A DNA stretch of 58,883 nt from Rhodobiaceae bacterium (GCA_002715765.1 PAZY01000022.1:5795-64677); one strand, 5' to 3'. Counted from the stretch's first letter, positions 7,869 through 46,525 are shown. The notes: a model not told the origin generated them from the letters alone. A program made the numbers and translations.

Positions 7869-7885
7869 ATGATGGAGTGGACAGA
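7869..7885 (+). other. left attachment core (attL) in dusA
   Basis: ATGATGGAGTGGACAGA encodes part of the DusA APMMEWTE segment and recurs at 45575-45591 with one G/C difference. Similarity to the right copy falls off beyond the T/A-rich island sequence on the right side. Confidence 0.82.
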
Positions 7886-11185: not shown

Positions 11186-11199
11186 ACAATCGACAACCA

Positions 11200-12438: not shown

Positions 12439-12462
12439 ATAGTTGATTTGGTGGTCCAAAAT

Positions 12463-12476
12463 TTTCAGTACTGAAA
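12463..12476. promoter_or_regulatory. 14-bp palindrome at the retron effector start
   Basis: TTTCAGTACTGAAA is a perfect palindrome 25 bp upstream of the ATG at 12438. It may be an operator for the effector's own winged-helix domain or a promoter-proximal site of the divergent RES gene. Confidence 0.4.
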
Positions 12477-12576
12477 TACACACTAATCAAGCGAACAAGG
12501 TTAGTTGACGCGATGGGCTTCCGCATGCCAAAGATCAACTTTCCCTACGGCTTGAAGATCCCTATTTCGGACATTG

Positions 12577-13413: not shown

Positions 13414-13986
13414 TAGGGGCTTTGCAACTATTGCCGCCGACTCGATGCAGACCAATTTTGCGACAATCTCAAAGACTGGGCCGCGAAGACCACTCTGAGG
13501 TTGACCTGAGCCGCCACCTCCTCACACAGCGATGATAATGCCTGATAGTGATTGGAGCATTTTCTAGCGTTGAAACCAGGTGCCTGCATGTATGGCAATA
13601 ATTGTGGAATGCTAGGCGCTTTGATAGGAACAGACAAACTGAACACGGTTAGCTGATGCCCTGCATTGTGTCCTCGCCTACGCGCCCAAAGTGGGTAAGG
13701 GATTGTGTAAATCTTCCCCATCAAGACCGTGGGGCACTCCTGAGGCGACAAGAAATGCTGAGGAAAATGTAACCGGCGGGGGCGGCATAGAACTCTGCAT
13801 GTAAGCGTTTGATATTGAAGAATAATACAGTTTTGAAAATCGCGTGAAACCAACAAAAATACCAACACCTCGAATTTGTAAGGTGGTTCAACACCCGATC
13901 TCTGTAATTGAACCGGCGACGCAACACCGACCTCAACAAATTCTTTCTTGCAAAAACACGTCAAACTCTCGGGGTGACAACTTCAG
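13414..13986. other. gene-poor stretch holding the second 91-bp repeat
   Basis: No supported gene. It contains the repeat at 13778-13868, followed by an inverted pair around AGGTGGTT. Minus-strand frames across it look like leaders of degraded integrase regions rather than proteins. Confidence 0.5.
13778..13868 (+). repeat. 91-bp degenerate direct repeat, copy 2
   Basis: Ungapped partner of 8287-8377 (65/91 identical). It contains AACCAACA and TACCAACA boxes 12 bp apart. With copy 1 it brackets a 5.4-kb cassette of HNH, retron and RES genes. Confidence 0.65.
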
Positions 13987-16769: not shown

Positions 16770-16781
16770 GGGTTAGGCGCA

Positions 16782-17780
16782 TTATCTCTCCACCTTTGAG
16801 AAAGCTTCTCGCATCTCTCTCCGGTCATTTAGACGCCTAAGGACATCGTCTGTTCTAATCGTGTCACGTTCATCGAGAATGGCGGTTTTTACTGCATCCT
16901 CTGAAGCCCGCGCGATCTCGGATTGACTGAGGCCTGCCGCCGCTTCGATAATCTTTTTCCATGCCAGCCGTGGTCGCTTCAGAGGTCTGAGGTATTTTTC
17001 AATCAGTGCTCTTATCTGCTCGTCAGAGGGAGATTCGAATTCGATTACAGCATCGAAACGTCGAAGTAGAGCGCGGTCGAGGAGTTCAGGGTGGTTTGTC
17101 GCTCCCAATAGGACACTGTCGGTCGCATTGGGCTGTTCGATGAGCTGTAAGAACGAGTTCAGCACTCGGCGCATTTCTGCAACATCATTGGTTGCTTTTC
17201 GGTGGCTGCCGATTGCATCAAATTCATCGAATAAATAGACGCCGCGACGCTTGAGTGTTTCATCAAAAACCAAACGCAACTTTGAGGCAGTCTCTCCCAT
17301 GAACCTTGTGATCAAGGATTCTAACCTGATCACAAACAAGGGTAGATGCAACTCACCCGCAAGCGCCTCTGCTGTCATCGTTTTGCCAGAGCCCGGCGGT
17401 CCTACAAACAGCACGCATCGGTTTGGCGTTTTACCATGTTCACGGAGCCAATCACGCTTTACTTGCTGGCGGATCAGATCTTCTAGCTTTTCGTTGACTG
17501 ATTCATGTAGAACAACATCTTTTATGCGCAGTTTCGGCTCTTTGAGGTCAATAAGAGATTCAAGATCGCCGCGCGGCCGCGCAAACGGAATAGCAACACC
17601 TACGCCTCGCAATTTTGCTGCTCTCGCTTCATCAACGGCGGTGCGCAGATCTTCCGCCGTGGAACGGTGACCACGCCTTGCTTCGGTGGCGGCAATCTGG
17701 AGCGCGATTGAATAAAATTGCTCGTCGTCTCCTGACACTCGACTCTTGAGCATTGCCAATATCTGCTTTGTGTTTGACAT
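16782..17780 (-). CDS. ietA: AAA ATPase, IetA-type
   Basis: A 332-residue AAA protein: Walker A GPPGSGKT (127-134), Walker B VYLFDEFDA (181-189), sensor 1 LLGATNHPE and the arginine-finger region DRALLRRFDAVIEF. The N-terminal 120 residues are helical and basic. It is the first gene of the ietA-ietS operon. In the described system the ATPase neutralises the partner subtilase. The ATG at 17780 lacks an obvious ribosome binding site. Confidence 0.82.
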   Translation of the reverse strand: MSNTKQILAMLKSRVSGDDEQFYSIALQIAATEARRGHRSTAEDLRTAVDEARAAKLRGVGVAIPFARPRGDLESLIDLKEPKLRIKDVVLHESVNEKLEDLIRQQVKRDWLREHGKTPNRCVLFVGPPGSGKTMTAEALAGELHLPLFVIRLESLITRFMGETASKLRLVFDETLKRRGVYLFDEFDAIGSHRKATNDVAEMRRVLNSFLQLIEQPNATDSVLLGATNHPELLDRALLRRFDAVIEFESPSDEQIRALIEKYLRPLKRPRLAWKKIIEAAAGLSQSEIARASEDAVKTAILDERDTIRTDDVLRRLNDRREMREAFSKVER

Positions 17781-24446: not shown

Positions 24447-25313
24447 ATGAGCAACATCAGATTATCTCGAGGGTTATGCGCAGTGGTGGGAGAAACCCTA
24501 GTTGGTTCGCATGCGACCCTTGACGCACTCTTCCAATCATCAGGAGCTCCAGGAGACCCACCTGATCTTTCACATGGTGCAAAATGGAAAGAATGGCTCT
24601 TTCGAGCTGGCCAAGACGAAAGTGTAGATAGCCTTTCTGTTCTCGGGAACGTTCTCGAGGAGTTTATGGATGTTGTTCCTTCCGACGAGGAAGATCGACA
24701 AGTATGGGAAAACAGTCGAGAGCGCGTCGTTAAAATTCTGGAGGAGAATGGCTTTCGATACTTTCAAGGCGGACGGGTCCTTCCTAACGGAACTTTGCCT
24801 GAAGAAACCATAATCTCTCCTGCTAACTTACAATCCACCTTAAAGCCAGATTCCATCGAAGATCTTCTGAAGATCTTGGTCAACGGATTACGACGGGCAA
24901 TGTATCCACTCGAACACCGGCGTAAGGGATCAATATCGCTTTCCTTCTTATCTGAGTATGACATTCAAGACCTTTTGCACGCACTTCTGAGACCCTGGGT
25001 GTTGGATATTAGGCCAGAAGAGTTCACCCCTAGCTACGCAAGCTTGAGCACTCGGATGGATTTTCTCTTGCCAAAGTATTCACTCGTCATTGAAACGAAA
25101 TTGGTCAGAGACAGAGCGCATGGGAAAAAGATCGGGGACGAACTGATTATCGATATCGACCATTATCGAGTGCACCCTGATTGCTCAAGCTTATGGTGCG
25201 TGATTTATGATCCCAATCACTACATTGAAAACTCAGGCGGTTTGATTGGAGACCTTGAGGGCGAAAGCAAGAATAAAAAGGGTTCAGTGAATTCGAAAGT
25301 CTTCGTCATTTAG
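24447..25313 (+). CDS. PD-(D/E)XK nuclease-domain protein, DpnII/MboI-like
   Basis: 288 residues. The C-terminal domain reads STRMDFLLPKYSLVIETKLV followed by GDELIIDIDHYRVHPDC and WCVIYDPNHYIEN. The RMDFLL Asp plus VIETK (E-x-K) are the PD-(D/E)XK catalytic elements in the arrangement I associate with REase_DpnII-MboI. The N-terminal 180 residues are helical and unassigned. No methyltransferase partner is adjacent, so it is not a classic restriction pair; such domains also occur in stand-alone defence proteins. It begins 1 bp after the serine recombinase stop. Its stop overlaps that of the convergent UvrD remnant. Confidence 0.65.
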   Translation: MSNIRLSRGLCAVVGETLVGSHATLDALFQSSGAPGDPPDLSHGAKWKEWLFRAGQDESVDSLSVLGNVLEEFMDVVPSDEEDRQVWENSRERVVKILEENGFRYFQGGRVLPNGTLPEETIISPANLQSTLKPDSIEDLLKILVNGLRRAMYPLEHRRKGSISLSFLSEYDIQDLLHALLRPWVLDIRPEEFTPSYASLSTRMDFLLPKYSLVIETKLVRDRAHGKKIGDELIIDIDHYRVHPDCSSLWCVIYDPNHYIENSGGLIGDLEGESKNKKGSVNSKVFVI

Positions 25314-29823: not shown

Positions 29824-31005
29824 GTGCCAACTGACAATCATCGCGTCTCATATTTTGCGCGTACCAACCATCGCGATCCGGTTCAAACTTTCGGTCTCAA
29901 ACAACGAGACCGGCTCTCGCACCTGTACGTAATCGGCAAAACGGGCGCCGGTAAGACGACGCTTCTGGAAACGCTCTTCACCCAGGACATGGCAGCAGGC
30001 CGCGGTTGCACCCTCATTGATCCTCATGGAGATTTTGTGGAACGGGTTGCCGCCAAAATTCCCGAAGATCGTCAATCGGACGTCATATATTTGGATGTTC
30101 CCAATTCTTCTCAACCATATGGATACAATCCCTTTGCGCATGTTCGCGCAGAACTCCGGCCTCTTGTTGCGTCGGGCATTCTCGATGTTTTCAAGAAGAT
30201 GTGGGACGATGCCTGGGGAGCGCGCATGGAGCATATTTTGCGCAATGCGATCCTGGCGCTCCTTGATCAACCTTCCGCCGCCATGCCTGATATTTTACTC
30301 ATGCTTACGAGCAAGGAATTCAGATACCAGGCGATCCGCAATATCGAAAACGAGCAAGTGAAAAGCTTCTGGCGCGCTGAGTTCCCCAAATATTCCTCCC
30401 GGTATCAGGCTGACGGTATTGCGCCCATTCAGAACAAGGTAGGGGCCTTTTTGGCTGACCCGACGCTTCGCTACATACTGACGCGTGAGGATGGTCAGCT
30501 GCGCATGCGATCAATCATGGATGAGGGGAAGGTCCTGCTAGTGAATCTCTCAAAGGGGAAACTCGGTGAGGACAGTTCCTCTCTGTTGGGCGGTCTTCTC
30601 GTTACTTCACTTGGACTGGCCGCCTTCAGCCGAGCAAACGTTGCCGAAGAATCCCGCAGGCCCTTCTACGTCTATGTTGATGAGTTTCAGAACTTCACTA
30701 CCCAGGCGATAGCCAACATGCTTTCGGAGCTCCGGAAATTTGGTGTCGGCGCCACTCTCGCGAACCAGTACCTGCATCAACTTGATCCGGATATCCGACA
30801 TGCGGTTCTGGGCAACGCAGGTACCCTCATATCATTTCGCCTGGGAGCAGAAGATGCCGACTTCATGGCCCGAGAGTTTGAGCCGGTTTTTGGCCGGATC
30901 GACCTCCTCAACCTCCCCAATCATGACATCTGTCTGAAGTTGATGATTGATGGCACACCCTCAAGACCCTTTAGTGCGACCACTATTCCCCCAGAACAGC
31001 TGTAA
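29824..31005 (+). CDS. VirD4/TraG-like P-loop ATPase
   Basis: 393 residues. Walker A VIGKTGAGKTT (36-46), TLIDPHGDFVERV right after, Walker B FYVYVDEFQNF (about 278-288), and ANQYLHQLDPDIRHAVLGN with TLISFRLG as later motifs. This is the HerA/TraG/VirD4 DNA-pumping ATPase core without N-terminal membrane helices, so it is cytoplasmic. It starts at GTG 29824. It is followed by a small protein and a second, larger ATPase of the same superfamily. No relaxase or type IV pore gene is visible, so it may move DNA with the recombinase or act in defence. Confidence 0.75.
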   Translation: MPTDNHRVSYFARTNHRDPVQTFGLKQRDRLSHLYVIGKTGAGKTTLLETLFTQDMAAGRGCTLIDPHGDFVERVAAKIPEDRQSDVIYLDVPNSSQPYGYNPFAHVRAELRPLVASGILDVFKKMWDDAWGARMEHILRNAILALLDQPSAAMPDILLMLTSKEFRYQAIRNIENEQVKSFWRAEFPKYSSRYQADGIAPIQNKVGAFLADPTLRYILTREDGQLRMRSIMDEGKVLLVNLSKGKLGEDSSSLLGGLLVTSLGLAAFSRANVAEESRRPFYVYVDEFQNFTTQAIANMLSELRKFGVGATLANQYLHQLDPDIRHAVLGNAGTLISFRLGAEDADFMAREFEPVFGRIDLLNLPNHDICLKLMIDGTPSRPFSATTIPPEQL

Positions 31006-31105
31006 TTTTGACGTTCACCGTGTCTCCAAAGCTCAGGTTTCTGCCGTTTTGTCCTTTTCCACACTGAATGTTTCGTATTAGCATGAAGGAGGTCGGCGAA
31101 CGCTC

Positions 31106-31549
31106 ATGAGGGGTACCAAAATGCAGTTGAGACTAAAGCGAGACCAGAAAGCTGGCATGACCGGCAATGTGACCTTCAAGCTCTACTTCATCGTTGATCT
31201 TGATCCGGAAGAGGCGGCAGCTCTCCAGAAATACAAGTTTGGCAAAGACATTGTCTATGAGACCCCAACAGGGGCTGCAGCGTCGGCTGGGCTCCGAGGA
31301 GCAGAAGGTGTTGGCAATATAGGCCGAGGGCTTGTTGCAACCCTTGCCGCCAAAGCGCTCAATCAAATTCTCACCGTGAACGATATGGTCAATGGCAAAG
31401 AGATTGCTTGTAAAGACATTGGCGAGATGATCGCAGCAGAAGAGCAGATCAAAGAGGCCTGCAACGGCCTCTCTCGCATACTCTATGCCTGCCGCCATTT
31501 TGAAGGCGAAGAGATCATTGACGTCGTACCGTTTCAATCTGAGGCATGA
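31106..31549 (+). CDS. hypothetical protein between two ATPases
   Basis: 147 residues from ATG 31106, or 142 from ATG 31121, which has GAGGGG 7 nt upstream; AAGGAGG lies 14 nt before the first. The N-terminal part (TGNVTFKLYFIVDLDPEEAA) looks like a small beta domain, the rest helical. Its stop overlaps the ATG of the next gene (ATGA at 31546), so the pair is translationally coupled. No family is recognised. Confidence 0.6.
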   Translation: MRGTKMQLRLKRDQKAGMTGNVTFKLYFIVDLDPEEAAALQKYKFGKDIVYETPTGAAASAGLRGAEGVGNIGRGLVATLAAKALNQILTVNDMVNGKEIACKDIGEMIAAEEQIKEACNGLSRILYACRHFEGEEIIDVVPFQSEA

Positions 31550-34206
31550 GCGATAATCCTTTTGCAGATCTGTTGGGATCGTTCAAACGGGGTTGGGAAA
31601 ACGCGGGTAAGGTAGAACACCTTTCAACCACACGCGTAAAATCACGCCCATCGTTCTGGAACCCGTTTCTCACCTGGCGTGATGAAGAAGAACGGGAGCT
31701 CTCTGAGCTCTACGAAACCGTCAAAAAGACCTTCGAAGCGTCCCCATTTGCAAGCGAGGAATTCCTCAACGAGACCACAAGCGCAATCGTTGTGGCAACA
31801 TTCACCGAGATCAATTGCGTGCCGTCAAATGACGTCCTCTCAGCAACATCCAATGCAGTCTTGAACCTCCTGAATGATGAGTTCTTTTCTTTTGTCAGCT
31901 TTGAAGGCCAAAATCGACATCAAAACCTGGAAGTTGGTGAAGCTCAAAAGCTGAAACGTGCCCTTGAGCGCAAGCGCCGTTTTCTGAACAATTCTGACCG
32001 ACAGTTTGAAATTGGCTGTCAGACGATCAGAGCCATCCTTTCCGCTCTTCTTGAGTTTTTGCCAGAGAGTTTTCGACGAAGAGAGAATAGCGACGACGAT
32101 ACATCTCTCTTTCAGCTTCATGTTGATCTCATCGACGCTATGGATCGCCCGAGTATCGCTGTGGAAGGCACGCTCATGGAGTTTTTTGGAGGTGAGCTTT
32201 ATGACAATGGCTTGTTTGAGGACTTGCAGGCGCAGTTTGAGCACAATCTCCTCGTTGCTTCCGGACTTGATCCTGAGAACAAAGATGTCCCGCCAAAGCA
32301 AATCATCATGCCAACAGCAGCGAAAGAAAAAACACCTTCAGAACTCGCAAGTACCTACCTCAAAGACACACCGTTTGAAGACTTTTTCGTTCGTCCACTT
32401 CCCCTGACCATTCCAGATCAGGCCCGCTTTGAGCACTGCCACATTTTGGGCGGCACGGGACACGGCAAAACCCAATGCGTGCAACTCTTACTCATTCAAG
32501 ACTTGGCACGCGCTCTTTCTGAACCAATCTCTGTCGTGGTCATCGACAGCCAGGGCGACCTCATCCGCAAGGTCTCATCCAGCATTCTTTTTGACCCAGA
32601 AGACGACGCTTCCCTAGCAGAGCGCTTTATCCTCATCGACCCATCAGACATAGACCATCCCCCAGCACTCAATCTGTTCGATGCAGGGCTCGAGCGGATG
32701 GAGAATTATACCCCTCATCAGCGAGAATTGGCGTTCAATTCCCTTGTCGACATATATGGCCGGTTTTTCGGGGCGCTGCTTGGCGCTGAGCTCACGGCTC
32801 GACAAAGTACGCTCTTCAGGTACCTCGCCCGCCTTATGCTGACAGTGGAGGGGGCGACCATCCACACGTTGATTGAGCTCATGGATGATGTCTCCCCCTT
32901 CAAAGAGCATATCCAGAAACTCGATCCGACAGCTCGGCGCTTCTTTGAGAATGAATTCTCCCGCAAGGGCTTTCATGCAACACGCCAGCAGATCAAGCAG
33001 CGGCTCTATGCGGTTCTTTCCATCCCGACGTTTGATCGATTGTTTTCGGCCCCAAAGTCCAAGATCAGCTTTTTCGACGCCTTCAACAGCGGCAAAATCA
33101 TACTGATCAACACCGCGAAAGATCTGCTCAAAAGTGACGGTACGGCCATCTTTGGACGCTTCATTCTTGCTCTCATTGAGCACGCGGTGATGGAACGCGC
33201 CAATTTAGTGGAGGAGAAGCGCAATCCGGTCTTTCTCTACATGGATGAAGCTCAAGACTATTTCGATGAGACCGTCGAAACATTGCTGGTACAGAGCAGG
33301 AAGTATAATTTTGGCCTCACGCTGGCTCATCAGAACCTCGCTCAGCTCTCTCCTCGTCTTAAAGCCATATTCATGGGCAACACGACGATAAAGATCGCAG
33401 GCGGCGTCTCAGACGCCGATGCGCGTGCCTTGGCGCCCGATATGCACACCGCACCTGACTTCCTCCTCTCTATGAAGAAGCGTCGGCACGTTTCTGACTT
33501 TGCCCTCTCCATTCGCAATCTCACGACGCATGCCGTCAAGGTGGATGTTCCTCTTGGTTTTTTGGAGGATACGGAATCCTTGGAGCCTCAGCAGTATGAG
33601 GCGCTCCTAGCTCTCAATCGGGATCGGGTGGGATACACTCCACAGACCACTGAGCCTGTCCAGGATGCTTCTCCAGCCATGCAATCTGCGTCTAGCCCTC
33701 CGGAGGCCAGAACAGAACATCGAGAGCTGCAAAAACGCATCAAAGTGGCAGCCCAAGAGCGTGGCTTCTCCGCCGTAATCGAGAAGCAGGTTCTCGACGG
33801 GAGGGGCCGTGTGGATGTGGCGTTGGAACGAGATGGGCTTAGAATTGCTTGCGAAGTGTCTGTGACGACAAAAATCGAACATGAGCGTCATAACATCGAA
33901 AAATGCCTGGCTGCCGGTTTCACCCACGTGTGGGTGACTTCGCCCGACAGAGCTCAACTTCAGAAACTAAGAGCGAGCCTACAACTGACACTAGTGCCAG
34001 AAGCCTTGGAACGCGTGTCGTTCCTCTCTGAAGAAGAGCTCATTGCTGAGTTGGATGCGTTCCCCATTAGCACGTCGAGAAGCCAGTCAAAGGTACGTGG
34101 CTATAGCGTGCAGACGATCCAAATCAAACTCAGTGCAGGGAGGTCACAAGACCGCCGTGACCGTCTCACCACAGTGCTTTCCAGTCTCTCCGAAACCGAA
34201 GTGTGA
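31546..34206 (+). CDS. large VirD4-like ATPase with C-terminal PD-(D/E)XK-like domain
   Basis: 886 residues. A 290-residue helical N-terminal region precedes the P-loop core: Walker A GGTGHGKT (302-309), VVVIDSQGDLIRKV, Walker B FLYMDEAQDYFDE and GLTLAHQNLAQL. After a Ser/Pro linker near 700, a C-terminal domain reads RVDVALERDGLRIACEVS with NIEKCLAAGFTHVWV. This is a restriction-nuclease-like fold seen at the end of some conjugative ATPases; the Lys of E-x-K is Ser here, so cleavage is uncertain. It is coupled to the upstream small gene and followed 12 bp later by a headless serine recombinase. The gene set suggests DNA movement by a recombinase element. Confidence 0.7.
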   Translation: MSDNPFADLLGSFKRGWENAGKVEHLSTTRVKSRPSFWNPFLTWRDEEERELSELYETVKKTFEASPFASEEFLNETTSAIVVATFTEINCVPSNDVLSATSNAVLNLLNDEFFSFVSFEGQNRHQNLEVGEAQKLKRALERKRRFLNNSDRQFEIGCQTIRAILSALLEFLPESFRRRENSDDDTSLFQLHVDLIDAMDRPSIAVEGTLMEFFGGELYDNGLFEDLQAQFEHNLLVASGLDPENKDVPPKQIIMPTAAKEKTPSELASTYLKDTPFEDFFVRPLPLTIPDQARFEHCHILGGTGHGKTQCVQLLLIQDLARALSEPISVVVIDSQGDLIRKVSSSILFDPEDDASLAERFILIDPSDIDHPPALNLFDAGLERMENYTPHQRELAFNSLVDIYGRFFGALLGAELTARQSTLFRYLARLMLTVEGATIHTLIELMDDVSPFKEHIQKLDPTARRFFENEFSRKGFHATRQQIKQRLYAVLSIPTFDRLFSAPKSKISFFDAFNSGKIILINTAKDLLKSDGTAIFGRFILALIEHAVMERANLVEEKRNPVFLYMDEAQDYFDETVETLLVQSRKYNFGLTLAHQNLAQLSPRLKAIFMGNTTIKIAGGVSDADARALAPDMHTAPDFLLSMKKRRHVSDFALSIRNLTTHAVKVDVPLGFLEDTESLEPQQYEALLALNRDRVGYTPQTTEPVQDASPAMQSASSPPEARTEHRELQKRIKVAAQERGFSAVIEKQVLDGRGRVDVALERDGLRIACEVSVTTKIEHERHNIEKCLAAGFTHVWVTSPDRAQLQKLRASLQLTLVPEALERVSFLSEEELIAELDAFPISTSRSQSKVRGYSVQTIQIKLSAGRSQDRRDRLTTVLSSLSETEV

Positions 34207-35364: not shown

Positions 35365-35598
35365 TCAATGAATATGGTGCTTGAGTACCAAGCATCCGAA
35401 AGACCGGGATAGATCGCCCAGAATCGAGAGACGTTGAGTGTATTCTCGAGAGCTCCTCATTGCTTTCCTGGAGCTCTCGCCCAGCTGCAGTAAATGAGCG
35501 AAAGGCTGGACGCGGTTGAATGCTGAGGTCCTGACCAGAGCCTTAGGCAGCTTTGTTGGCCCTATCTTACTGGCCATTAAGTGGAAACCAGCCTTCAT
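35365..35598 (-). CDS. possible small protein coupled to the STAND NTPase gene
   Basis: A 77-residue frame whose ATG overlaps the stop of the 2026-residue gene in ATGA. The overlap is typical of coupled genes, but the product (basic, no motif) has no recognised family and an inverted repeat lies inside it. Treat as a weak call. Confidence 0.25.
   Translation of the reverse strand: MKAGFHLMASKIGPTKLPKALVRTSAFNRVQPFAHLLQLGESSRKAMRSSREYTQRLSILGDLSRSFGCLVLKHHIH
35447..35479. repeat. 10-bp perfect inverted repeat downstream of the STAND gene
   Basis: CGAGAGCTCC (35447-35456) and GGAGCTCTCG (35470-35479) with a 13-base spacer. No T-run follows on either strand. Apart from this and the weak small frame, 35298-35594 shows nothing else. 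Confidence 0.5.
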
Positions 35599-38500
35599 TT
35601 CTGGGCCGTTTCAACTGGTGAGCCAGTTACGCTAGAAGACGCGACAGAACGCGAACTAGATCTGTTCGGGTCGTCGCGCTGCTCGACATGCCTCCAAGCT
35701 TCATAGACTAAGTTGATGGTCCCATAGGCTGCCTCAAATTCGCGGTGCCCTGTTGCTGAAAGAACGACCTGTTGTCCTTCTCCAAACTTCGAATTTTCGC
35801 CGACAGGCTGAATGAGACCATCTCTCCAAATGATCGTTCGTGCCATCTCCTCACCTTGACCGTTGCAATAGATATGCAATTCAGAAGGGTCTTGGATCCA
35901 ACCTAGCTCTGCAGCTGTAAGCGGGCAAAATACTATAAGCTTGTCGATCGGTGCATACATGTGATGGGGATCAAATACTGCTATCCGCGATGGATTTATG
36001 TTTTCTGCATCATATAGCTCCACCATTCCCTGAATGAAGATGACCCTTGGCAAGTTAGCGATCAGCTCATCGAGGTTTGACGCGGAGTTTCTCCGATTTC
36101 CAGTTGCGCCAAATCGTTCCGCAACTATCGAAGATCTTAGGTCTTTTGACGTTACACTGTACCATTCAGCAAAAACGAACTGATCGACTTCTGTCTCTGA
36201 AATTGTCAAATCGTCGGATACTGATTCAAGCCAGACTTCCTCAGCTTCACCCCAGAGCATATTGGGAGCCTCTGGCAAGGTGAGGTTAGTTGGGCGTTGT
36301 TGAAACGGTGGCAGACCTATAATTCTTGGGTTGGCATGAAGTTCGAAAAGAATGAACGGAATGTCTCTGATCGAAAGATGGCTGGCGTGCCAAAGCTCGC
36401 CCACTATATGCCGCATGGCCCGCAGAACAACCTCAGCCTGTGGCCGTCGGTATGTCAACTTGAGATCGATGCGAGATAGAGCTTGTTCTAAGCGTTTCGA
36501 TGCGGGGTGCCCGAACGCCTCAATGCCGCCCCAAGTCTGCACGAGCTGGCCAACACGGAAACGGATATGACGCTCTGAAAACCCCGACCACTTCGCGATC
36601 CACTTTATCGGTTCTCTCCACCCTTCAGTCCACGCTAGCAGATCGTCGACAATAAGGCCTCGAGTCTGTTGGTCCGATAGAGTGTGGCCGGAAGGGGCCT
36701 CGTCAGATGGGAAGTGGAGATCGTAGAATGGGGGTAAGTCGAGCCATTTTATCGAGACACGCACTTGCCAGACCGATGCCAGAAATATGGCGGCAGCAAT
36801 CACTCCAGCATCTGGATGTCCTGCCAAATTTTGAAGGTGTTGGGAAAACTGCTCACGGATATTATCGTCGTTGTGTGCCTCGATAAGTAGATCCATAGCG
36901 ACCAAAGCGTTCTCATCTTCATCGTCCAGTAGTTGCCATACGACATCCCTAAATAGGGCATCGCTGTCCTGGGTACGAAGTTCGTGCAAGCCAAGGACTG
37001 CTTGATCCAGAATGACTGGAACCCCAAGCGAAATCGCCCATATGTATATCTTGGCCAACAGGTTTCCGTCCGCAGGAACCTCATTGAGATCGGTGACTTC
37101 TCGTCCGACTTGAAAGTCGTGCATAGTTCGAATGTGAGTCTCGAGACAATTCCATAAATCGACCCAATTGATCTTTTCGAACAGAAGCGGGAAAATTGTG
37201 TCAAGTTCCCAGATTATTGATCTCACCCCATAGCGTACTGTTGCAAGTTGTTCGAAAAAATCTCGTCGAGCATCCTCATAGGCATTATCCATCTCCAGCA
37301 GATGTCGAAGCTCGTGCTTTTTCTTAGTACCGTAGCCGGAGGCCCATTCCCATCCCTCTTCGTCGGCTTCCAAGTAAGGTGCAGCAAGGGCGAGGGCGGT
37401 ATCCCGCTCTCCTGCCTTCAGTGCGACGCAAATCATGGCCTTTATCGCGTCGAAGTTTTCTGTGAGTTCTGGTTCGTCTTTGGCGAATATCTTGACCTCT
37501 TCCCACGGCGAGTTTGCCAGAACACGAGAAAGCGCCCGTTCGAGTCCCCAAGTGATGCCGGATGTTCGATAAGTCTTCTCGTCTTTCTTTGCAAAGTAGG
37601 CGCGCTCGTCGGCTATTGCGCCCTGAACGTCGGATAGTTTTGTCAATCGGTGATAGGATTTGTTGTCTGGAATTGTTTCTGATTCAATAAGGCTGATGTC
37701 ACTCCACCGTAGCTTTTCTTCTCGTGCACGCTGTCCATGATCCTTGGCGGATGCCGCTTCCTCCAAAACTCCGAGGAGAGAAAGACGGACTTCCGGGCGT
37801 GATCGTTCTGCTATCGCAGTAGCCGCTGCAGCTTCAAGCGCCTCTACTTCTGAGGGTTTCGCTGACGCAATTAGATCTGTAAGGAACTGCGCAGTAGATC
37901 CTGTGCTGTTGTAAGGTTCGGTGTACCAGGGCAGACATAGATGCGACCAAGTTGTGAGGATTGAACTCAAGGGTATCGTTTTCCGAACAATTAATCCCCG
38001 GAGCGCAGAGTCAACGATGCCATCCCAACTTGTTACACCTGTAGACGCGGCCCAAGCTCCGCTGTTCCAGGTAGAATTGGCGTCACATGCTGCCACCTCG
38101 AACAGTACTTGGCGCACAATTCTCAGGCCCATGTCAGACCCTTCGGAGTTTTGGAGCCCGTCAATCAACTTAAGAACTACGTTAGCGCGCTCGACACGGT
38201 GGTTAGGGTCTTGATTGTTTGCTTTGCCTAGAAGTGCATTCCAGATTTCATACTGTCCGTCTTTTTTAGCGGGCAGATAGACGGCTAGTGCCTCACGCCG
38301 TAAGTCATTCAGAATTTGACCGGCTCGGGCTGTATCACCAATCTGAGCGAATGCTATAGCAATTGATGTAGCTTGTTCTGCTCGTTCCCTTGGGTCACTC
38401 GCATCGAGCGCTTCGCATGCATCTTCCAGCCTTTTGCGAGCGTCAGAAACGTCGCCGTCTAAGGCGAATGTTCTGAGCGAAACTTGTGTTCGGAAATGTG

Positions 38501-41500
38501 GCCACCAACGAAACCGTGCTTGATCACGCGCAATCAAGCCATCTGTAATTTCAGCAACGAAGTTTGATTCGACGCTGGTAATACCTACAAGCGTAAATAT
38601 AACGTCCAGAATGACGGATGAGAGCGAATTGAGATGGTAGTCACTGAAATGATCTTCACCATCGATTGTCCGTTCCGTCGCGAGGAAATTAATTGCTGCA
38701 TGTATGACGCGTTCGACAGTATCTTTGGTTGGAGGATTGTTCTTGCGTGCTTCTCCGATCTCTCTAGCAATCGCGACCAGATGGTGCTGGACTCCTTTCA
38801 AGAGTCGCTTCTTTGGCAAGCCGAGATCGGGGATTGGTTCGTCGAGAGCGACGCATAGAGCCACGCCTTTTGCCAGATGTTCACAAGCAGAACTAAGGAC
38901 TTCATTGTCATAGTCCCGATCAATGGCACCTAGACCTTGTGGACGTGAGTAACTCAGGAATTTCTGCGCGAGATCTTTGTGTCCCGCTCGCAATGCACGA
39001 CGCGCGGCGTCGAGCAGCCACGAAATATGTAACTTGCCGACGGACGGGTGATCGGCGGATTTTTTGAGAAGACTGAGCGCGCGATTGTTGTCGCCGGTTG
39101 TGGAAAATGCTGCTTCAAGCAGGATGAGTGGCTCTTGGTCGTAGGCTACGCCCCACGTCTTGATGAGTTCCCACAGATCACTAGAAGGGTCTGCAGAAGC
39201 GTATGCTCGCGCAATTTGAAACTTGAGCCTTTCGGCAACATCTTCGGGCTCAGGATCAAGTTCTGATCTGGAGGACGGAAGATTGGAAAAGACCTCGGAA
39301 ACAAGGCGCTTAAGCTGAGCCTCGTCCATAAATATTATCGCTCGCTCTGCCCAAGGAAGTGAAGCTTGTCGTATTGCATCCCTTACGGAGACGCCATATT
39401 CGTTTGAGGGAAGAAAAGGGCTGTGATTCTCGAAGACTCTGCGTGCTTCCTCAACCTTGCCATCGTCGAGAAGCGCATCGACCACTATCCATTGCCGTCC
39501 CTCCTCGTAACTGTCTGAAAGGGTATCCGATGCGCCTTGCAGATCTCCGATTGCTACATAAGCATCGGGAAGAGATGGGGCGCCTTCCATAATGTCGCTG
39601 CGTCGATCTACTTCGTCGCGAGCTAGAAGCAAGTCGAAGAGCTTTGTGGGCTCAGGGTTGATGCTCAGTGCGTGGAAGGCATCGTTGATATCGCCGCAAA
39701 CGGCGCTGACGGACCGGCCTGTGCAATACTGCTCCACAAAATACTCGCGGTTGCCGAGCTGCAGTGCTTCCTCGTAAGCTTCAGCTTTGTAAAGGTAGCG
39801 AAATTCGAGCCAACGCTGCGGACTGAACTCCGAAGCTTCGCGCGTTAGGCTGGAAAGTCGTCTGTAGGTGATATCGGGCGAATAGTCTGGATCGACCATT
39901 CCGAATTTGTCTACCGGCTTAGTTTGAATGAAGAGGCGGAAGCTATTGTGAAACGTTGTCCAGCCAATATCGGTGATGCTCAACAGATGAGAGACCTTCG
40001 CCAAGGTTCTTTCTACGGCTTCATCCGATGTTGCCGATGCAAGAAGTCGCGGCTCTATTGGCCCTTCAGCATACCCTACGAGAGCAAGAACCCTTTTGAC
40101 CTTACCGCTATCCAAGAGGTTTTCTATCTCTCGCCAAGCTGCCGTATAGATATCTTCTAAGTCTCCATCAAACCCATATTGTCCGCTCAACAAATCGTCG
40201 CGCATTTGTCTATCGGAGGAAATTAGTCTTTGGATCAGGTACCGGGTAACCAGGGGATGGCCATCGGTGACAGAGTAAACCTGTGAAGGAGCAATATCGT
40301 TTGGTAGCCCAAATTGTACGGCAACTCTTGCGACCGCTTCTTCAGAAAGTGGCGTGATTGCTACCTGGCGGTCTGGTTTTGCCGCTTCTTCGCGGACTGA
40401 TGGTGGTAGACCATCGAGATCCAGGCGCTGTGTTCCCAGAACAAAAAGGATGCCTTCTGGGATTGATTGGGGAAGTGGTAAAACACCTAGCATTGACCGA
40501 CTGGGTCGTTCTTCCCGCGGAATGTGATCAAGGCCGTCAACTACGATTATGTAGCGCGTCCCATCATTCGTGTAGTGTTGCGCAGCTTGCGAGAGAAGAT
40601 CTGCAAAAATTTGTTGCAGACCATGCAGCGTTCGATCCTTTATCCGAAGTGGTTCGATACCGGTTGCTGCGAGCCCCGCATTGATGTCTTCATAAAAACT
40701 CTCAGCTTCACCTCGTCCCTGTCCTTGAGTGTTTCCCGGCACGAAAGCGAGGTATCGAATTATTCTGGTATTTGGCCCGTCGCGAAATACGGTTTGTAGA
40801 AGAGTTGACTTACCTGTACCGGGTGATCCAACTAGGCTTAAGTACCCGGAGGTATGTGTCTTTATTGCATTGCTAAGCTTAGATTCGGTGATGTCGTTCT
40901 TCTGGACGTACTCGCCAACGGGAAAAGTGTGAGAGAATCTCATTGTGAACGGATCTCGCCAGCCAAGCGCTGTGAGCAATTCCAATCTTGACCAACGGTC
41001 TTGCTCTGGAGTGTCAACGATTAGTGCAGGGATGGCTCTCGCAACTTCCTCGATTTCATCATCGAGTTTGGCGTCTTCTGGAGTGGAGAATGTAGATGAC
41101 GCCTCTTCCCCCAGAATCAGATCGAAATTTTTCCAAAAGGTTTCGAAAGCATGATCAGTCAGACCTGTTGCTAACACGAGCTGATTGATAACTGGAGCCC
41201 ACTTCGTTGAGCGCCACTCTGCCAACGTGCGGTTTCGATTTATCTGTTTCTCATCGATAAATGCTTTAGTTGTCGAAAGGGTGGAACCCTTAATCAAGCG
41301 GTCGTTAATAGACGGTGGATCTACAGATAGAAATCGAATGACGATTGGAGACCCAGGGAATTGCATCTGAAGAGTCATAAAAGACTGCGCTAAGTCTGCG
41401 ATGTATGATGCTTTCCCAAGTAGCGATCCAATAAGCCCGATTGGTTCCGGAGTTGCTGAATTCTTGAACTGATGCCCGACGATTGTGCCCTCTAGACCTA

Positions 41501-41675
41501 GAACGAGGTCATCCGCTACTCCTGCCTTGCGGTCTGCAAGGCCCACCCATCTTAGACTACGGTTTCTCAGAGCTTCGTGGAGTAAATGTGCGGAGGCGCG
41601 ATCTTGAAAAACGTAGCCTAGCCGTGCTGACCTTTCACCTTCTGCAGGAGGGCGGTGTTGGTGTCCATTGGACAT
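35595..41675 (-). CDS. giant STAND NTPase with Cap4/DUF4297-like nuclease head (Avs-like)
   Basis: 2026 residues. The head (about 15-125; RLGYVFQDRASAHLLHEAL, GVADDLVLGLEGTIVGHQFK) has an Asp pair at 55-56 and Q-x-K at 69-71, the arrangement of Cap4/DUF4297 PD-(D/E)XK domains. The STAND core has Walker A GSPGTGKS (283-290) and Walker B YIIVVDGLDHI (375-385), with GHPLVTRYLIQRL as the winged-helix region near 475. The remaining 1500 residues are helical repeat-like (many Ala/Leu/Asp helices), suited to a ligand sensor. Avs proteins bind conserved phage proteins and trigger DNA cleavage. No close subtype (Avs2 versus Avs3) can be fixed by eye. It is transcribed alone from the promoter region at 41676-42035. 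Confidence 0.75.
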   Translation of the reverse strand: MSNGHQHRPPAEGERSARLGYVFQDRASAHLLHEALRNRSLRWVGLADRKAGVADDLVLGLEGTIVGHQFKNSATPEPIGLIGSLLGKASYIADLAQSFMTLQMQFPGSPIVIRFLSVDPPSINDRLIKGSTLSTTKAFIDEKQINRNRTLAEWRSTKWAPVINQLVLATGLTDHAFETFWKNFDLILGEEASSTFSTPEDAKLDDEIEEVARAIPALIVDTPEQDRWSRLELLTALGWRDPFTMRFSHTFPVGEYVQKNDITESKLSNAIKTHTSGYLSLVGSPGTGKSTLLQTVFRDGPNTRIIRYLAFVPGNTQGQGRGEAESFYEDINAGLAATGIEPLRIKDRTLHGLQQIFADLLSQAAQHYTNDGTRYIIVVDGLDHIPREERPSRSMLGVLPLPQSIPEGILFVLGTQRLDLDGLPPSVREEAAKPDRQVAITPLSEEAVARVAVQFGLPNDIAPSQVYSVTDGHPLVTRYLIQRLISSDRQMRDDLLSGQYGFDGDLEDIYTAAWREIENLLDSGKVKRVLALVGYAEGPIEPRLLASATSDEAVERTLAKVSHLLSITDIGWTTFHNSFRLFIQTKPVDKFGMVDPDYSPDITYRRLSSLTREASEFSPQRWLEFRYLYKAEAYEEALQLGNREYFVEQYCTGRSVSAVCGDINDAFHALSINPEPTKLFDLLLARDEVDRRSDIMEGAPSLPDAYVAIGDLQGASDTLSDSYEEGRQWIVVDALLDDGKVEEARRVFENHSPFLPSNEYGVSVRDAIRQASLPWAERAIIFMDEAQLKRLVSEVFSNLPSSRSELDPEPEDVAERLKFQIARAYASADPSSDLWELIKTWGVAYDQEPLILLEAAFSTTGDNNRALSLLKKSADHPSVGKLHISWLLDAARRALRAGHKDLAQKFLSYSRPQGLGAIDRDYDNEVLSSACEHLAKGVALCVALDEPIPDLGLPKKRLLKGVQHHLVAIAREIGEARKNNPPTKDTVERVIHAAINFLATERTIDGEDHFSDYHLNSLSSVILDVIFTLVGITSVESNFVAEITDGLIARDQARFRWWPHFRTQVSLRTFALDGDVSDARKRLEDACEALDASDPRERAEQATSIAIAFAQIGDTARAGQILNDLRREALAVYLPAKKDGQYEIWNALLGKANNQDPNHRVERANVVLKLIDGLQNSEGSDMGLRIVRQVLFEVAACDANSTWNSGAWAASTGVTSWDGIVDSALRGLIVRKTIPLSSILTTWSHLCLPWYTEPYNSTGSTAQFLTDLIASAKPSEVEALEAAAATAIAERSRPEVRLSLLGVLEEAASAKDHGQRAREEKLRWSDISLIESETIPDNKSYHRLTKLSDVQGAIADERAYFAKKDEKTYRTSGITWGLERALSRVLANSPWEEVKIFAKDEPELTENFDAIKAMICVALKAGERDTALALAAPYLEADEEGWEWASGYGTKKKHELRHLLEMDNAYEDARRDFFEQLATVRYGVRSIIWELDTIFPLLFEKINWVDLWNCLETHIRTMHDFQVGREVTDLNEVPADGNLLAKIYIWAISLGVPVILDQAVLGLHELRTQDSDALFRDVVWQLLDDEDENALVAMDLLIEAHNDDNIREQFSQHLQNLAGHPDAGVIAAAIFLASVWQVRVSIKWLDLPPFYDLHFPSDEAPSGHTLSDQQTRGLIVDDLLAWTEGWREPIKWIAKWSGFSERHIRFRVGQLVQTWGGIEAFGHPASKRLEQALSRIDLKLTYRRPQAEVVLRAMRHIVGELWHASHLSIRDIPFILFELHANPRIIGLPPFQQRPTNLTLPEAPNMLWGEAEEVWLESVSDDLTISETEVDQFVFAEWYSVTSKDLRSSIVAERFGATGNRRNSASNLDELIANLPRVIFIQGMVELYDAENINPSRIAVFDPHHMYAPIDKLIVFCPLTAAELGWIQDPSELHIYCNGQGEEMARTIIWRDGLIQPVGENSKFGEGQQVVLSATGHREFEAAYGTINLVYEAWRHVEQRDDPNRSSSRSVASSSVTGSPVETAQK

Positions 41676-42035: not shown

Positions 42036-42890
42036 ATGTTAGATCGACCTTTCATTGATTCGTCCATGCTGGCCAATCTCCGCGTGTTTCTGAAAACTTA
42101 CCCGGAACTCCAGCAGATGACGGGTGAGGTGGCCAGATTTTGTGTGGTGTTGGACGCCAATGCCGCCGTCAGCGATTTGCTACATAAGCATAGTAAACCC
42201 CACCTTCCCCAGACGGCTCTGGAGGAGTGCATTAAGTCCAGTGTGATAGAAGTGTACGCTCCAACCTGGCTTGACCGTGAAATGACTGAGAGCGCCATTC
42301 CTCAGGTTGCTAAACAGAAGAACATTCCGGAGGCTGTGCTGCAAAGGTCGTGGGACGATTATAAGAAAGGGATCGTCTGGGATGAGCGGTTTGCAGCACC
42401 TGAGGCGACTTCAGAAGGTGCTGTCGATCCTAAGGATGTTCCTTATGTCGCCCTAGCAGAGTGCATTTCTGCCGATGGAATTCTGACCAGCGACAAAGAT
42501 ATCGACCGACTCGGTGGGAACACTTTGACATTGCGCTTTGTTATTTCGGCTAGGTCATATGCAAGAGCGAGCAGCTATCACGTTACCATCCAGGTCGGGG
42601 GAACTGTCATAGGCGTACTGACCCTCTCTGCGATGTATCAACTCGTCACTACTATCTACTCGCTTGCTTCCAGACTGCCGGGTTGGGCGCGGTTCGCTCT
42701 ATTCGTTGCAGCCGTGGTCGTTGCTGTGCACCCGACATCGAGAGAAAAAGTATTGAGTTTCCTGCTAAGCTGGGGTTCTGCCTTGGCCAGTATGGTGCCG
42801 GAAATCGAGAAACTCATCGTGCTTGCCTCTGAGAAACAAGTGGAGGCTCAAGAGGCCATGTGCGAGATCAAGCAATGGGCTGAATCTTAG
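42036..42890 (+). CDS. membrane-anchored PIN-domain protein
   Basis: 284 residues. The N-terminal domain has PIN-fold landmarks: CVVLDANAAVSDLL (Asp40), an acidic middle (PTWLDREMTESA) and DPKDVPYVALAECISADGILTSDKDI, with the late Asp pair. PIN domains are RNases, the toxic half of VapBC pairs. The C-terminal half has two membrane segments, VGGTVIGVLTLSAMYQLVTT and WARFALFVAAVVVAVH, unlike VapC. It lies beside the STAND gene, reading away from it. No antitoxin is adjacent. An anti-phage or abortive RNase held at the membrane is a reasonable guess. The ATG at 42036 has no ribosome binding site; ATG 42066 is an alternative. Confidence 0.6.
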   Translation: MLDRPFIDSSMLANLRVFLKTYPELQQMTGEVARFCVVLDANAAVSDLLHKHSKPHLPQTALEECIKSSVIEVYAPTWLDREMTESAIPQVAKQKNIPEAVLQRSWDDYKKGIVWDERFAAPEATSEGAVDPKDVPYVALAECISADGILTSDKDIDRLGGNTLTLRFVISARSYARASSYHVTIQVGGTVIGVLTLSAMYQLVTTIYSLASRLPGWARFALFVAAVVVAVHPTSREKVLSFLLSWGSALASMVPEIEKLIVLASEKQVEAQEAMCEIKQWAES

Positions 42891-44356: not shown

Positions 44357-45424
44357 TCAGCTTGCGTTGTGTGTTGGCAAAACGCTGTCGCTAAAAAGAA
44401 GCTCCGGCTTCAAATGCGTATAGCGCCGCAGCATTTTCCAGTCTTTGTGACCTGTCACTAATGCGACCCGTTCAATGGGCAGACCAGCTTCAAATAGACG
44501 GCTCGTGGCCTCGTGGCGCAAGTCGTGGAAATGTAGGTCTTCAATTCCAAGTGACTTACAGGTACGCCGGAACGCGGTGCCGACTGAACGTTCATTGTAC
44601 GGAAAGATGAGCTTGATCTTCGGGTAAGCAATTTTCTGTTCTTGGAGAATGGCCCAGGCATCAAAGCCGGTTAGATCGATCAATGGCACGCGTTGATGAT
44701 TACCATCCTTCTTGCGGGGGTCTTTTCTGTCGCGCACGATGACCGTCCGACGGTCCTCGTCAATATCAGCCCAGCGCAGACGGCAAATCTCAGCTTGGCG
44801 CATGCCCGTCGCAACAGCGAAGCGCACAATTCGATCAACGGGAATTTGCTGCCGGGAGTTGTTCTCTAGACACTTGATGATCTTGTCCAATTCAGATTGC
44901 GTTGGACGCCGGTCCCGCTCAACACCACGACCGATAAGCCCCAATCTGCGCAGCGCAACGCGGGCGAGATCAACTTGCTCTTTTGATACGGTGATCCCGT
45001 GAACTGCCGCCGCATGGGTGATAATTGTATTGATATAGGAGAGTTCGGAGCTCAAGGTCACTGGCCTGGCGCCTTCGCGTGCCCGCTGCCGACCATAGTC
45101 GATTAGTTCTTCCCTATTTACCGTTTCAAAGGCCGTTTTTCCAAGCCGCTCTTTGAGTTTCTGTAGCGTATATGCCTTTGAACGCCGTAGAGGCTTTTTA
45201 ACCTCGTGCATATCTCGAATGTGGAGGTCGATTAAATCGCCGAATGTCTTTATATGTGTCGGACGATTTACCGAAACGCTTTCACGGCGGTCAACGCGAC
45301 GCTCTGTTTCCAGGGCCCACAATTCGGCATCGTGACGTCGACGGAAGCTCTCAGATGCATATTTGCCTTTGCGCCGGATGAGGGCGCGCCAATTGCCTGA
45401 TGGGAGTTTCTGAAATGTAGCCAT
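44357..45424 (-). CDS. int: tyrosine integrase of the dusA island
   Basis: 355 residues from ATG 45424 (MATFQKLPSGNW), preferred to an upstream frame extending to 45478. An AP2-like arm-binding N-terminus (about 1-50) and core-binding domain (about 55-150) precede the catalytic domain with Arg209 (ATGMRQAEICRL), His300-Arg303 (FHDLRH), His326 (VTGHKDWK) and Tyr335 (LRRYTHL), all intact. It reads away from dusA, with its start 151 bp from attR, where GTGTACAC boxes lie. The position and boxes make it the enzyme that inserted this island into dusA. Confidence 0.9.
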   Translation of the reverse strand: MATFQKLPSGNWRALIRRKGKYASESFRRRHDAELWALETERRVDRRESVSVNRPTHIKTFGDLIDLHIRDMHEVKKPLRRSKAYTLQKLKERLGKTAFETVNREELIDYGRQRAREGARPVTLSSELSYINTIITHAAAVHGITVSKEQVDLARVALRRLGLIGRGVERDRRPTQSELDKIIKCLENNSRQQIPVDRIVRFAVATGMRQAEICRLRWADIDEDRRTVIVRDRKDPRKKDGNHQRVPLIDLTGFDAWAILQEQKIAYPKIKLIFPYNERSVGTAFRRTCKSLGIEDLHFHDLRHEATSRLFEAGLPIERVALVTGHKDWKMLRRYTHLKPELLFSDSVLPTHNAS

Positions 45425-45438
45425 TCCGTGTGCGCTCC

Positions 45439-45502
45439 GTGTACACCAAGAGATCAAACAGCGTACAAACGTGTACAATTTGGGCTAACTTGAGGTGTAC
45501 AC
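45439..45502. repeat. GTGTACAC boxes at right island end
   Basis: GTGTACAC at 45439-45446 and 45495-45502, and CGTGTACA at 45470-45477 preceded by CGTACA at 45462. The same 8-mer occurs at 7930-7937 at the left end. Probable integrase arm sites overlapping the integrase promoter. Confidence 0.5.
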
Positions 45503-45535: not shown

Positions 45536-46525
45536 ATGCAACAATATCAATCACATAGATTTTCTATTGCGCCCATGATGGACTGGACAGACCGGCACGA
45601 CCGGTTTTTCCTGCGTCTCATCTCGCGCCATGCGTTGCTCTATACGGAAATGGTAACCGCGCCCGCTATCATTCACGGGGACAGGGGGTATCTGTTGGGC
45701 TTCAGTGATGAGGAACATCCCGTCGCGGTACAACTGGGCGGCAGTGTCGCTGAAGAACTTGTTCAGGCCGCAAAGATTGCCGAAGATTATGGCTACGACG
45801 AGATCAACCTCAATGTCGGTTGCCCGTCAGACCGGGTGCAATCCGGGCGGTTCGGCGCCTGCCTGATGCTGGAGCCGGACCTTGTCGCCGAATGTGTGGC
45901 AGCGATGCAAAATGCCGTCCATGTGCCGGTTACGGTCAAATGTCGTATCGGTGTGGATGAGCAGGACCCCCGTGAAGCTCTCCCAACCCTGATTGAGAAA
46001 GTCAGTGCCACGGGGTGCCGGAATTTTACCGTGCATGCGCGCAAGGCCTGGTTGCAGGGCCTGTCTCCGAAGGAAAACCGCACCGTTCCGCCGCTCGATA
46101 ATCCGTTGGTCTACGAGATGAAGCGCATGTTTCCTGCGCTCGAAATCTGCATCAATGGCGGTATCGCAACACTGGACGAGACGGAAGAGCATCTTGCGCA
46201 TGTAGATGGTGTGATGATGGGTCGCGCGGCTTATGAAAACCCCTATGTGCTGGCTGACGTGGATCAGCGCTTCTTTGGTGCGACGCTGGCACCCTTGTCG
46301 CGGCACGAGGTGATTGAGGCATTCTTACCCTATATCGCAGCGCGGCTTGCCGAAGGAGTGACGCCCACTGCGATGACGCGCCACATTCTGGGTCTTTTCC
46401 AGCACATGCCCGGCGCTCGTGCCTTCCGCCGTCACTTGAGTGAGAATGCGCACAAGCCCGGCGCCGGTTTGGATGTCGTGCGCGACGCCGCGGCGAAAGT
46501 CCGCGAGCCTGTGTTTGCTGAATAA
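45536..46525 (+). CDS. dusA: tRNA-dihydrouridine(20/20a) synthase DusA with island-supplied N-terminus
   Basis: 329 residues, full length for DusA. Motifs: FSIAPMMDWTDRHDRFFLR, LYTEMVTAPAI, AVQLGGS, INLNVGCPSDRVQSGRFG (catalytic Cys96), VTVKCRIGVD and FTVHARKAWLQGLSP. It reduces U20/U20a in the tRNA D-loop using FMN and NADPH. The first seven or so residues (MQQYQSH) and the upstream ribosome binding site (CAGGAA) come from the island, replacing those stranded at 7824. The two N-termini agree again from RFS(V/I)APMM onward. Island insertion therefore preserves function but changes the promoter. Confidence 0.95.
   Translation: MQQYQSHRFSIAPMMDWTDRHDRFFLRLISRHALLYTEMVTAPAIIHGDRGYLLGFSDEEHPVAVQLGGSVAEELVQAAKIAEDYGYDEINLNVGCPSDRVQSGRFGACLMLEPDLVAECVAAMQNAVHVPVTVKCRIGVDEQDPREALPTLIEKVSATGCRNFTVHARKAWLQGLSPKENRTVPPLDNPLVYEMKRMFPALEICINGGIATLDETEEHLAHVDGVMMGRAAYENPYVLADVDQRFFGATLAPLSRHEVIEAFLPYIAARLAEGVTPTAMTRHILGLFQHMPGARAFRRHLSENAHKPGAGLDVVRDAAAKVREPVFAE
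45575..45591 (+). other. right attachment core (attR) in dusA
   Basis: ATGATGGACTGGACAGA, one base different from attL at 7869-7885. It codes for MMDWTD in the active dusA. Confidence 0.82.

What the first reader, a model, noticed from the sequence alone, without database searches (positions are those of the whole stretch)
35595..41675. 2026-residue STAND NTPase with Cap4/DUF4297-like nuclease head
The head motif (DD at 55-56, Q-x-K at 69-71), Walker A/B and 1500-residue helical sensor match the Avs plan, but the sensor is not assignable by eye to a known Avs subtype. A new sensor could recognise a different phage protein.
Basis: partly seen in the sequence, partly recalled or inferred. Interest (0 to 1): 0.6.

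Follow-up and report, generated by a model that had tools for sequence, protein, structure and literature searches.

The report
Unnamed Avs3/Avs1-like phage-sensing nuclease
A very large bacterial protein that probably recognises a phage protein inside the infected cell and then cuts DNA; it belongs to a widespread but unnamed family that bridges two known anti-phage sensor types (Avs1 and Avs3), so its likely trigger is the phage DNA-packaging enzyme rather than something new.

Summary
The ORF is real: ATG to stop, 2026 aa, on the minus strand (41675 to 35595), in a 37.7-kb defence island integrated in dusA. It defines a family: 73 further full-length homologs (19-44% identical to it) were retrieved from several phyla. 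In all of them the head keeps D55, D56 and K71 (Q69 in 97%), together with the STAND motifs. No defence library tested names the family. Its members hit only the NTPase of Avs1b, far below that model's cut-off. Predicted structures (pLDDT 91 and 88) and profile-profile alignments nevertheless place it. Head, NTPase, solenoid and beta-rich C-terminal domain run collinear with SeAvs3 from end to end at about 12% identity, while the NTPase is nearer to Avs1b. Avs3 and Avs1 themselves match each other only in the NTPase, so this family bridges them. It lacks avs3b, avs1a, avs1c and the Avs1b protease. Most likely it is a one-gene Avs-type receptor: phage protein binding, assembly, nuclease activation, abortive infection. 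Because Avs1 and Avs3 sense the large terminase subunit, that is the predicted trigger (inferred, not shown). New variant of a known kind.

The parts
35595..41675 (-). Whole gene, 2026-aa nuclease-STAND-sensor protein
   Evidence: Open frame ATG to stop; full-length homologs
40890..41675 (-). Residues 1-262: Cap4/DUF4297-type PD-(D/E)xK nuclease head
   Evidence: AF2 model, VIA Z 13.0 to Cap4 7yib over 200 residues and inclusion in the 8dgc match; PADLOC Cap4 (SAVED_PDDEXK) hits in 10 of 61 members, Pfam Cap4_nuclease in 2 of 61
41463..41636 (-). Nuclease active-site span: E14, D55-D56, Q69, K71
   Evidence: 97-100% conserved in 74 sequences; QFK aligns with QLK of Avs3a
39816..40913 (-). Residues 255-620: STAND NTPase and winged helix
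   Evidence: Pfam AAA_22 above cut-off; Avs1b NTPase match; structure matches Apaf-1, NLRs, MalT, Avs3
40803..40829 (-). Walker A GSPGTGKST (283-291)
   Evidence: Conserved 99-100% at G286, G288, K289, S290, T291
40518..40553 (-). Walker B YIIVVDGLDHIP (375-386)
   Evidence: D380-H384 invariant
40251..40262 (-). GHPL (472-475), GxP-type STAND motif
   Evidence: 97-100% conserved; identical GHPL in Avs1b
39936..39950 (-). HNSFR (576-580), candidate MHD-like histidine motif of the winged helix
   Evidence: 96-100% conserved; aligns with HSSF of Avs1b; function by analogy with NLRs
36186..39818 (-). Residues 620-1830: alpha-solenoid sensor
   Evidence: AF2 model of residues 900-2000, pLDDT 88.3; collinear match to SeAvs3. 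Residues 621-899 were not modelled
35676..36179 (-). Residues about 1833-2000: beta-rich C-terminal domain
   Evidence: Secondary structure of the model; lies inside the end-to-end alignment to 8dgc up to residue 2049; not aligned to Avs1b
35365..35598 (-). 77-aa ORF overlapping the stop codon; not regarded as part of the system
   Evidence: Not conserved downstream of homologs and unlike Avs1c
44357..45478 (-). Tyrosine integrase of the island that carries the gene
   Evidence: Pfam Phage_integrase 9e-29; next to dusA, whose 5' end is duplicated at 7869-7885 and 45575-45591

Best explanation
A single-gene AVAST-type anti-phage receptor. At rest it is an inactive protein held by its STAND NTPase. 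During infection the C-terminal solenoid plus beta-rich domain binds a phage protein, most likely the large terminase subunit (TerL). The NTPase then switches to its ATP state and the protein assembles (a tetramer in SeAvs3), bringing the N-terminal Cap4-type PD-(D/E)xK heads together. The active nuclease degrades host and phage DNA and aborts the infection. Shown here: domain order, conserved active sites, full-length collinearity with Avs3, closeness of the NTPase to Avs1b, absence of partner genes, location in a defence island. Inferred: oligomerisation, DNA cleavage, abortive infection and TerL as the trigger.
For: Head: E14, D55, D56, K71 100% and Q69 97% in 74 sequences; fold match to Cap4 7yib Z 13.0. 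Residues 8-620 model (pLDDT 90.9): best PDB hit SeAvs3 8dgc, E 5.5e-18, Z 17.6 over 454 residues. Residues 900-2000 model (pLDDT 88.3): only PDB hits below 1e-3 are the 8dgc chains, Z 16.6 over 840 residues, next 9.6. Profile-profile to Avs3a: residues 7-2008 against 3-2070, probability 99.9; sensor alone 97.9; reversed decoys 0.1. To Avs1b: 262-1742, probability 100; sensor alone 86.6. Avs1-3 sense TerL and Avs4 portal (PMC12724215; PMC12931631); SeAvs3 tetramerises and activates its nuclease dimers (PMC11291478). Defence context: retron III-A, IetAS; Gabija, AbiE, type I MTase and others beside homologs.
Against: No functional data. Identity to Avs3 is only about 12%, and a shared fold does not prove a shared ligand; even within Avs2 a second activator, Ksap1, is reported (PMC12724215). 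No Avs3b or Avs1c partner is present, so assembly could differ. Residues 621-899 were not modelled, and no complex with TerL could be predicted here.
Confidence: 0.6

Rival explanations
1. Same machine, different trigger: the sensor has diverged so that it binds another conserved phage protein (portal, capsid, early protein) rather than TerL.
For: About 12% identity to Avs3; the sensor is the least conserved part of the family (per-50-residue conservation 0.25-0.49 over most of it, against 0.47-0.64 in the NTPase); Avs4 and Avs5 sense other proteins.
Against: The sensor including its C-terminal domain aligns end to end with Avs3 and partly with Avs1b, both TerL sensors; Avs2 profiles share only the P-loop region.
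Confidence: 0.3
2. It is simply a divergent Avs3 (or Avs1) that should be filed in that type (a rival on classification, compatible with the main mechanism).
For: Full-length collinearity with Avs3a; all 24 members scanned hit the Avs1b NTPase model.
Against: No match to Avs3a HMMs, although the Avs3a model finds real Avs3a proteins; NTPase tree separates it from Avs3a at 100/100; no avs3b, avs1a, avs1c or protease head; NCBIfam Avs1b score 56.6 against cut-off 1500.
Confidence: 0.25
3. A STAND regulator or plasmid/mobile-element conflict protein rather than a phage receptor.
For: STAND folds include MalT, the top VIA match of the NTPase part; many homologs lie on plasmids and islands.
Against: Invariant nuclease head, no DNA-binding transcription domain, defence neighbours.
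Confidence: 0.07
4. A decayed, inactive gene.
For: Some relatives are broken (V. cholerae pW6G gene in two frames).
Against: 2026-aa frame intact here with all conserved catalytic residues.
Confidence: 0.03

Closest known systems
SeAvs3 / Avs3a (AVAST type 3; PDB 8DGC)
   Same: Cap4-type PD-(D/E)xK head, STAND NTPase, solenoid and C-terminal domain, collinear over the whole length; similar length (2092 aa in 8DGC)
   Different: About 12% identity; not matched by Avs3a models; NTPase nearer to Avs1b; no avs3b gene downstream
Avs1b (AVAST type 1)
   Same: Closest NTPase by sequence, shared GHPL and HNSF-type motifs, sensor homologous over residues 262-1742
   Different: Avs1b has a trypsin-like protease head with separate Avs1a nuclease and Avs1c genes; the C-terminal beta-rich domain does not align
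Cap4 (CBASS effector) and DUF4297-HerA nuclease
   Same: Nuclease fold and E...DD...QxK site; SeAvs3 and Cap4 are also the top structural hits of DUF4297
   Different: Cap4 is fused to a SAVED domain and activated by cyclic oligonucleotides (own knowledge); DUF4297 works with HerA; here the head is fused to a STAND receptor
Unnamed 1450-1922-aa Cap4-STAND proteins (loci L098, L100, L101, L102)
   Same: Cap4-like head and Avs1b-like NTPase
   Different: Sensors shorter or not alignable over their length; L098, L101 and L102 have a second gene directly downstream

Membership tests
STAND NTPase superfamily | Walker A, Walker B, GxP-type motif and winged-helix histidine in an NB-ARC/NACHT-like fold | tested here: met
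   Motifs 97-100% conserved; fold matches MalT, Apaf-1, NLRs and Avs3, Z 17-20
Cap4/DUF4297-type PD-(D/E)xK nuclease | Fold plus E, D, QxK catalytic residues | tested here: met
   activity itself not testable here
Avs3 (AVAST type 3) | Cap4-type head, STAND and homologous C-terminal sensor | tested here: met
   Structure Z 17.6 and 16.6; profile-profile probability 99.9, sensor alone 97.9, decoys 0.1
Avs3 (AVAST type 3) | Match to curated Avs3a model | tested here: not met
   No hit for P0001 or any of 24 members at E up to 1 in PADLOC; none in NCBIfam at 0.01. PDLC02167 = Avs3a works as positive control (L131 matches 8dgc at 4.9e-132)
Avs3 (AVAST type 3) | avs3b gene overlapping the 3' end | tested here: not met
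   Only an unconserved 77-aa ORF here; no conserved downstream ORF in homologs; no conserved neighbour; true Avs3a loci have it
Avs3 / Avs1 | Activation by the phage large terminase subunit | not testable with these tools
   Needs an experiment
Avs1 (AVAST type 1) | Trypsin-like protease head on Avs1b | tested here: not met
   Head has no match in Avs1b (probability 0.1) and is a nuclease fold
Avs1 (AVAST type 1) | avs1a and avs1c partner genes | tested here: not met
   No conserved neighbour beside this gene and homologs; present beside Avs1b
Avs1 (AVAST type 1) | NCBIfam Avs1b equivalog cut-off | tested here: not met
   56.6 bits against 1500
Avs2 | Match to Avs2 models or Avs2-like sensor | tested here: not met
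   No model hit; profile alignment reaches only the P-loop region
Avs4 | Match to Avs4 model or Avs4-like sensor | tested here: inconclusive
   No PADLOC Avs4 hit; EcAvs4 8dgf matches the N-terminal model more weakly (E 2.6e-8) and is not listed for the sensor model
Avs5 | SIR2 effector head | tested here: not met
   Head is PD-(D/E)xK

The most novel reading that the evidence does not exclude
The family is a separate AVAST type, neither Avs1 nor Avs3, whose diverged sensor recognises a phage protein other than the large terminase subunit.
Probability: 0.3. Interest if true: 0.7.

Novelty: new variant of a known kind. Interest (0 to 1): 0.5.

Why it matters
It points to a widespread bacterial immune receptor family that current annotation calls only 'ATP-binding protein'. 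It links two Avs types whose sensors looked unrelated by sequence, giving a testable prediction of its trigger and a model of how Avs receptors exchange their effector heads (nuclease in this family and Avs3, protease plus separate nuclease in Avs1). A natural E. coli member makes the test easy.

Tried and rejected
Single-sequence searches under-report the family: phmmer on the PDB gave only noise, Pfam found no nuclease in this protein, and peptide-pattern scans with the single protein found nothing in 84,980 genomes or in viral contigs. Searching 146 related and 385 same-class genomes with the protein gave only itself and one trivial match, so the gene is not a lineage trait. No match in phage records. 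A conserved partner gene was sought and not found. PDB profile searches of the sensor gave only designed PPR and other repeat proteins, taken as a repeat-composition effect. Structural search of viral proteins gave nothing below 1e-3. EcAvs4 is not listed among the sensor's structural matches, which does not exclude it. Idea that Avs1b arose from inside this family by head replacement: the NTPase tree draws it so, but monophyly of the family is not rejected (AU p 0.49) and long branches are involved, so it is left open. The primary Avs3 paper is not in the library.

Full report
Observation. The frame is real and intact: ATG at 41675, stop ending at 35595, minus strand, 2026 aa.

A family, not a singleton. 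tblastn on plasmids found full-length relatives in Sphingobium (41%), enterobacterial plasmids (31%), rhizobia, Nitrosococcus and Vibrio, and a further relative in Rhodococcus. A profile search of one genome per species found 177 stretches that encode a relative; the best 80 were fetched, plus 4 from viral contigs. Of the loci in hand, 73 hold an intact frame over 1850 aa. Identity to the window protein runs from 44% down to 19%. Members come from Alpha-, Beta- and Gammaproteobacteria, Magnetococcales, Actinomycetota, Bacteroidota, Planctomycetota and Chloroflexota. The length filter removes truncated genes, so conservation of the head is measured only among full-length members.

What is conserved. 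E14, D55, D56, K71 100%, Q69 97%; Walker A and B, GHPL (472-475) and HNSFR (576-580) near-invariant; scattered invariant residues in the sensor (for example W1145, W1815). The head is present in every full-length member sampled, although the search patterns came from the NTPase region (DGLDH, HNSFR), so heads were not selected for.

What the head is. Member by member, 10 of 61 heads match a PADLOC Cap4-type nuclease profile (best 6e-7) and 2 match Pfam Cap4_nuclease. The AF2 model of residues 8-620 (pLDDT 90.9) shows helix, strand, strand with DD, strand with QxK, and matches crystal Cap4 (7yib, Z 13.0) and the nuclease-plus-NTPase half of SeAvs3 (8dgc; Foldseek E 5.5e-18; VIA Z 17.6 over 454 residues).

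What the sensor is. The AF2 model of residues 900-2000 (pLDDT 88.3) is a long alpha-solenoid closed by a beta-rich domain (about 1833-2000). Against the whole PDB only the two 8dgc chains score below 1e-3 (3e-10 and 9e-10). VIA aligns 840 of 1101 residues to SeAvs3 912-2049 at Z 16.6 (rmsd 7.1 A), whereas the next chain has Z 9.6 with a meaningless rmsd. For helical repeats a Z near 13 can be fortuitous; the gap to the next hit, the collinearity and the inclusion of the beta-rich domain argue against that.

Independent sequence test. Avs3a proteins were collected by running the PADLOC Avs3a model over genomes and from plasmid records, two of them annotated avs3a; Avs1b proteins came from annotated avs1 operons and from the PADLOC Avs1b model. 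hhalign of the family profile gave: Avs3a, 7-2008 against 3-2070, probability 99.9, E 1.8e-35, sensor alone 97.9; Avs1b, 262-1742 against 206-1699, probability 100, E 8e-43, sensor alone 86.6, C-terminal domain and head not aligned; Avs2, P-loop region only; reversed decoys 0.0-0.3. Avs3a against Avs1b directly: NTPase only, probability 79. The family therefore connects the two. In the NTPase tree it groups with Avs1b and away from Avs3a at 100/100; whether Avs1b lies inside or beside the family is not resolved.

Membership. By curated models it is none of Avs1-5: the only defence-library signal of weight is the Avs1b NTPase, in 24 of 24 members, far below the curated cut-off for the window protein. 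It lacks avs3b, avs1a, avs1c and the protease. It is best described as an unnamed AVAST-type family, Avs3-like in layout and Avs1-like in its NTPase. What it works like (an Avs receptor) is better supported than what it should be called.

Mechanism. From literature on relatives: Avs1-3 are activated by the large terminase subunit and Avs4 by portal (PMC12724215; PMC12931631); SeAvs3 tetramerises on ligand binding, which pairs and activates its nuclease heads (PMC11291478). Transferred to this protein this gives a single-gene abortive-infection receptor with TerL as likeliest trigger. The transfer of the ligand is inference.

Context. The gene lies in a 37.7-kb island of lower GC (50.4% against 56%) bounded by duplicated dusA 5' sequence at 7869-7885 and 45575-45591, with a tyrosine integrase next to dusA. 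The island also holds a type III-A retron pair, IetAS and a helical-REase-like protein. Neighbours of homologs include Gabija GajB, AbiE, type I methyltransferases, PD-T7-1 and SoFic, and AbiE, Dsr1 and Lit in annotated plasmids; no background rate was measured. In E. coli an almost identical member occurs in 11 of 5,426 genomes, in the two chromosomes examined between hipA and ydeT beside integrases.

Verdict. Architecture confirmed; assignment refined from 'unassignable' to 'Avs3/Avs1-bridging family'; trigger predicted, not shown.

Noticed in passing
window 7869-7885 and 45575-45591: Duplicated dusA 5' end (ATGATGGA[G/C]TGGACAGA) bounding a 37.7-kb island of 50.4% GC in 56% GC flanks; integrase at 44357-45478.
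   Followed up: yes
window 9831-12483: Type III-A retron pair: reverse transcriptase (PADLOC 4e-168) and phosphoribosyltransferase (3e-114); the non-coding RNA was not located (no Rfam hit in the window).
   Followed up: partly
window 8283-8377 and 13774-13868: 95-nt direct repeats, 72% identical, flanking the retron module; possible recombination scars or RNA elements.
   Followed up: no
window 14295-17780: IetAS-like pair: S8 subtilase (IetS 2e-35) and AAA ATPase (IetA 5e-72).
   Followed up: no
window 24447-25313: Helical-REase-like protein of the argonaute-associated kind (PADLOC Aga_Helical-REase 8e-26) directly after a large serine recombinase; no argonaute gene was noticed beside it.
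   Followed up: no
window 29824-34206: Two VirD4/HerA-like ATPases (393 and 886 aa) near a truncated serine recombinase.
   Followed up: no
window 42036-42890: Divergent neighbour of the STAND gene: PIN-domain protein with hydrophobic C-terminal stretches.
   Followed up: no
L098 5269-11132, L102 5185-11051, L101 5215-10955: A second unnamed group: 1450-1474-aa Cap4-like STAND proteins with a gene of about 460-480 aa directly downstream, looking like a two-gene system.
   Followed up: partly
L091, L092, L093: Three contigs classed as viral in IMG/VR carry full-length members; they may be prophage or mobile-element borne copies.
   Followed up: no
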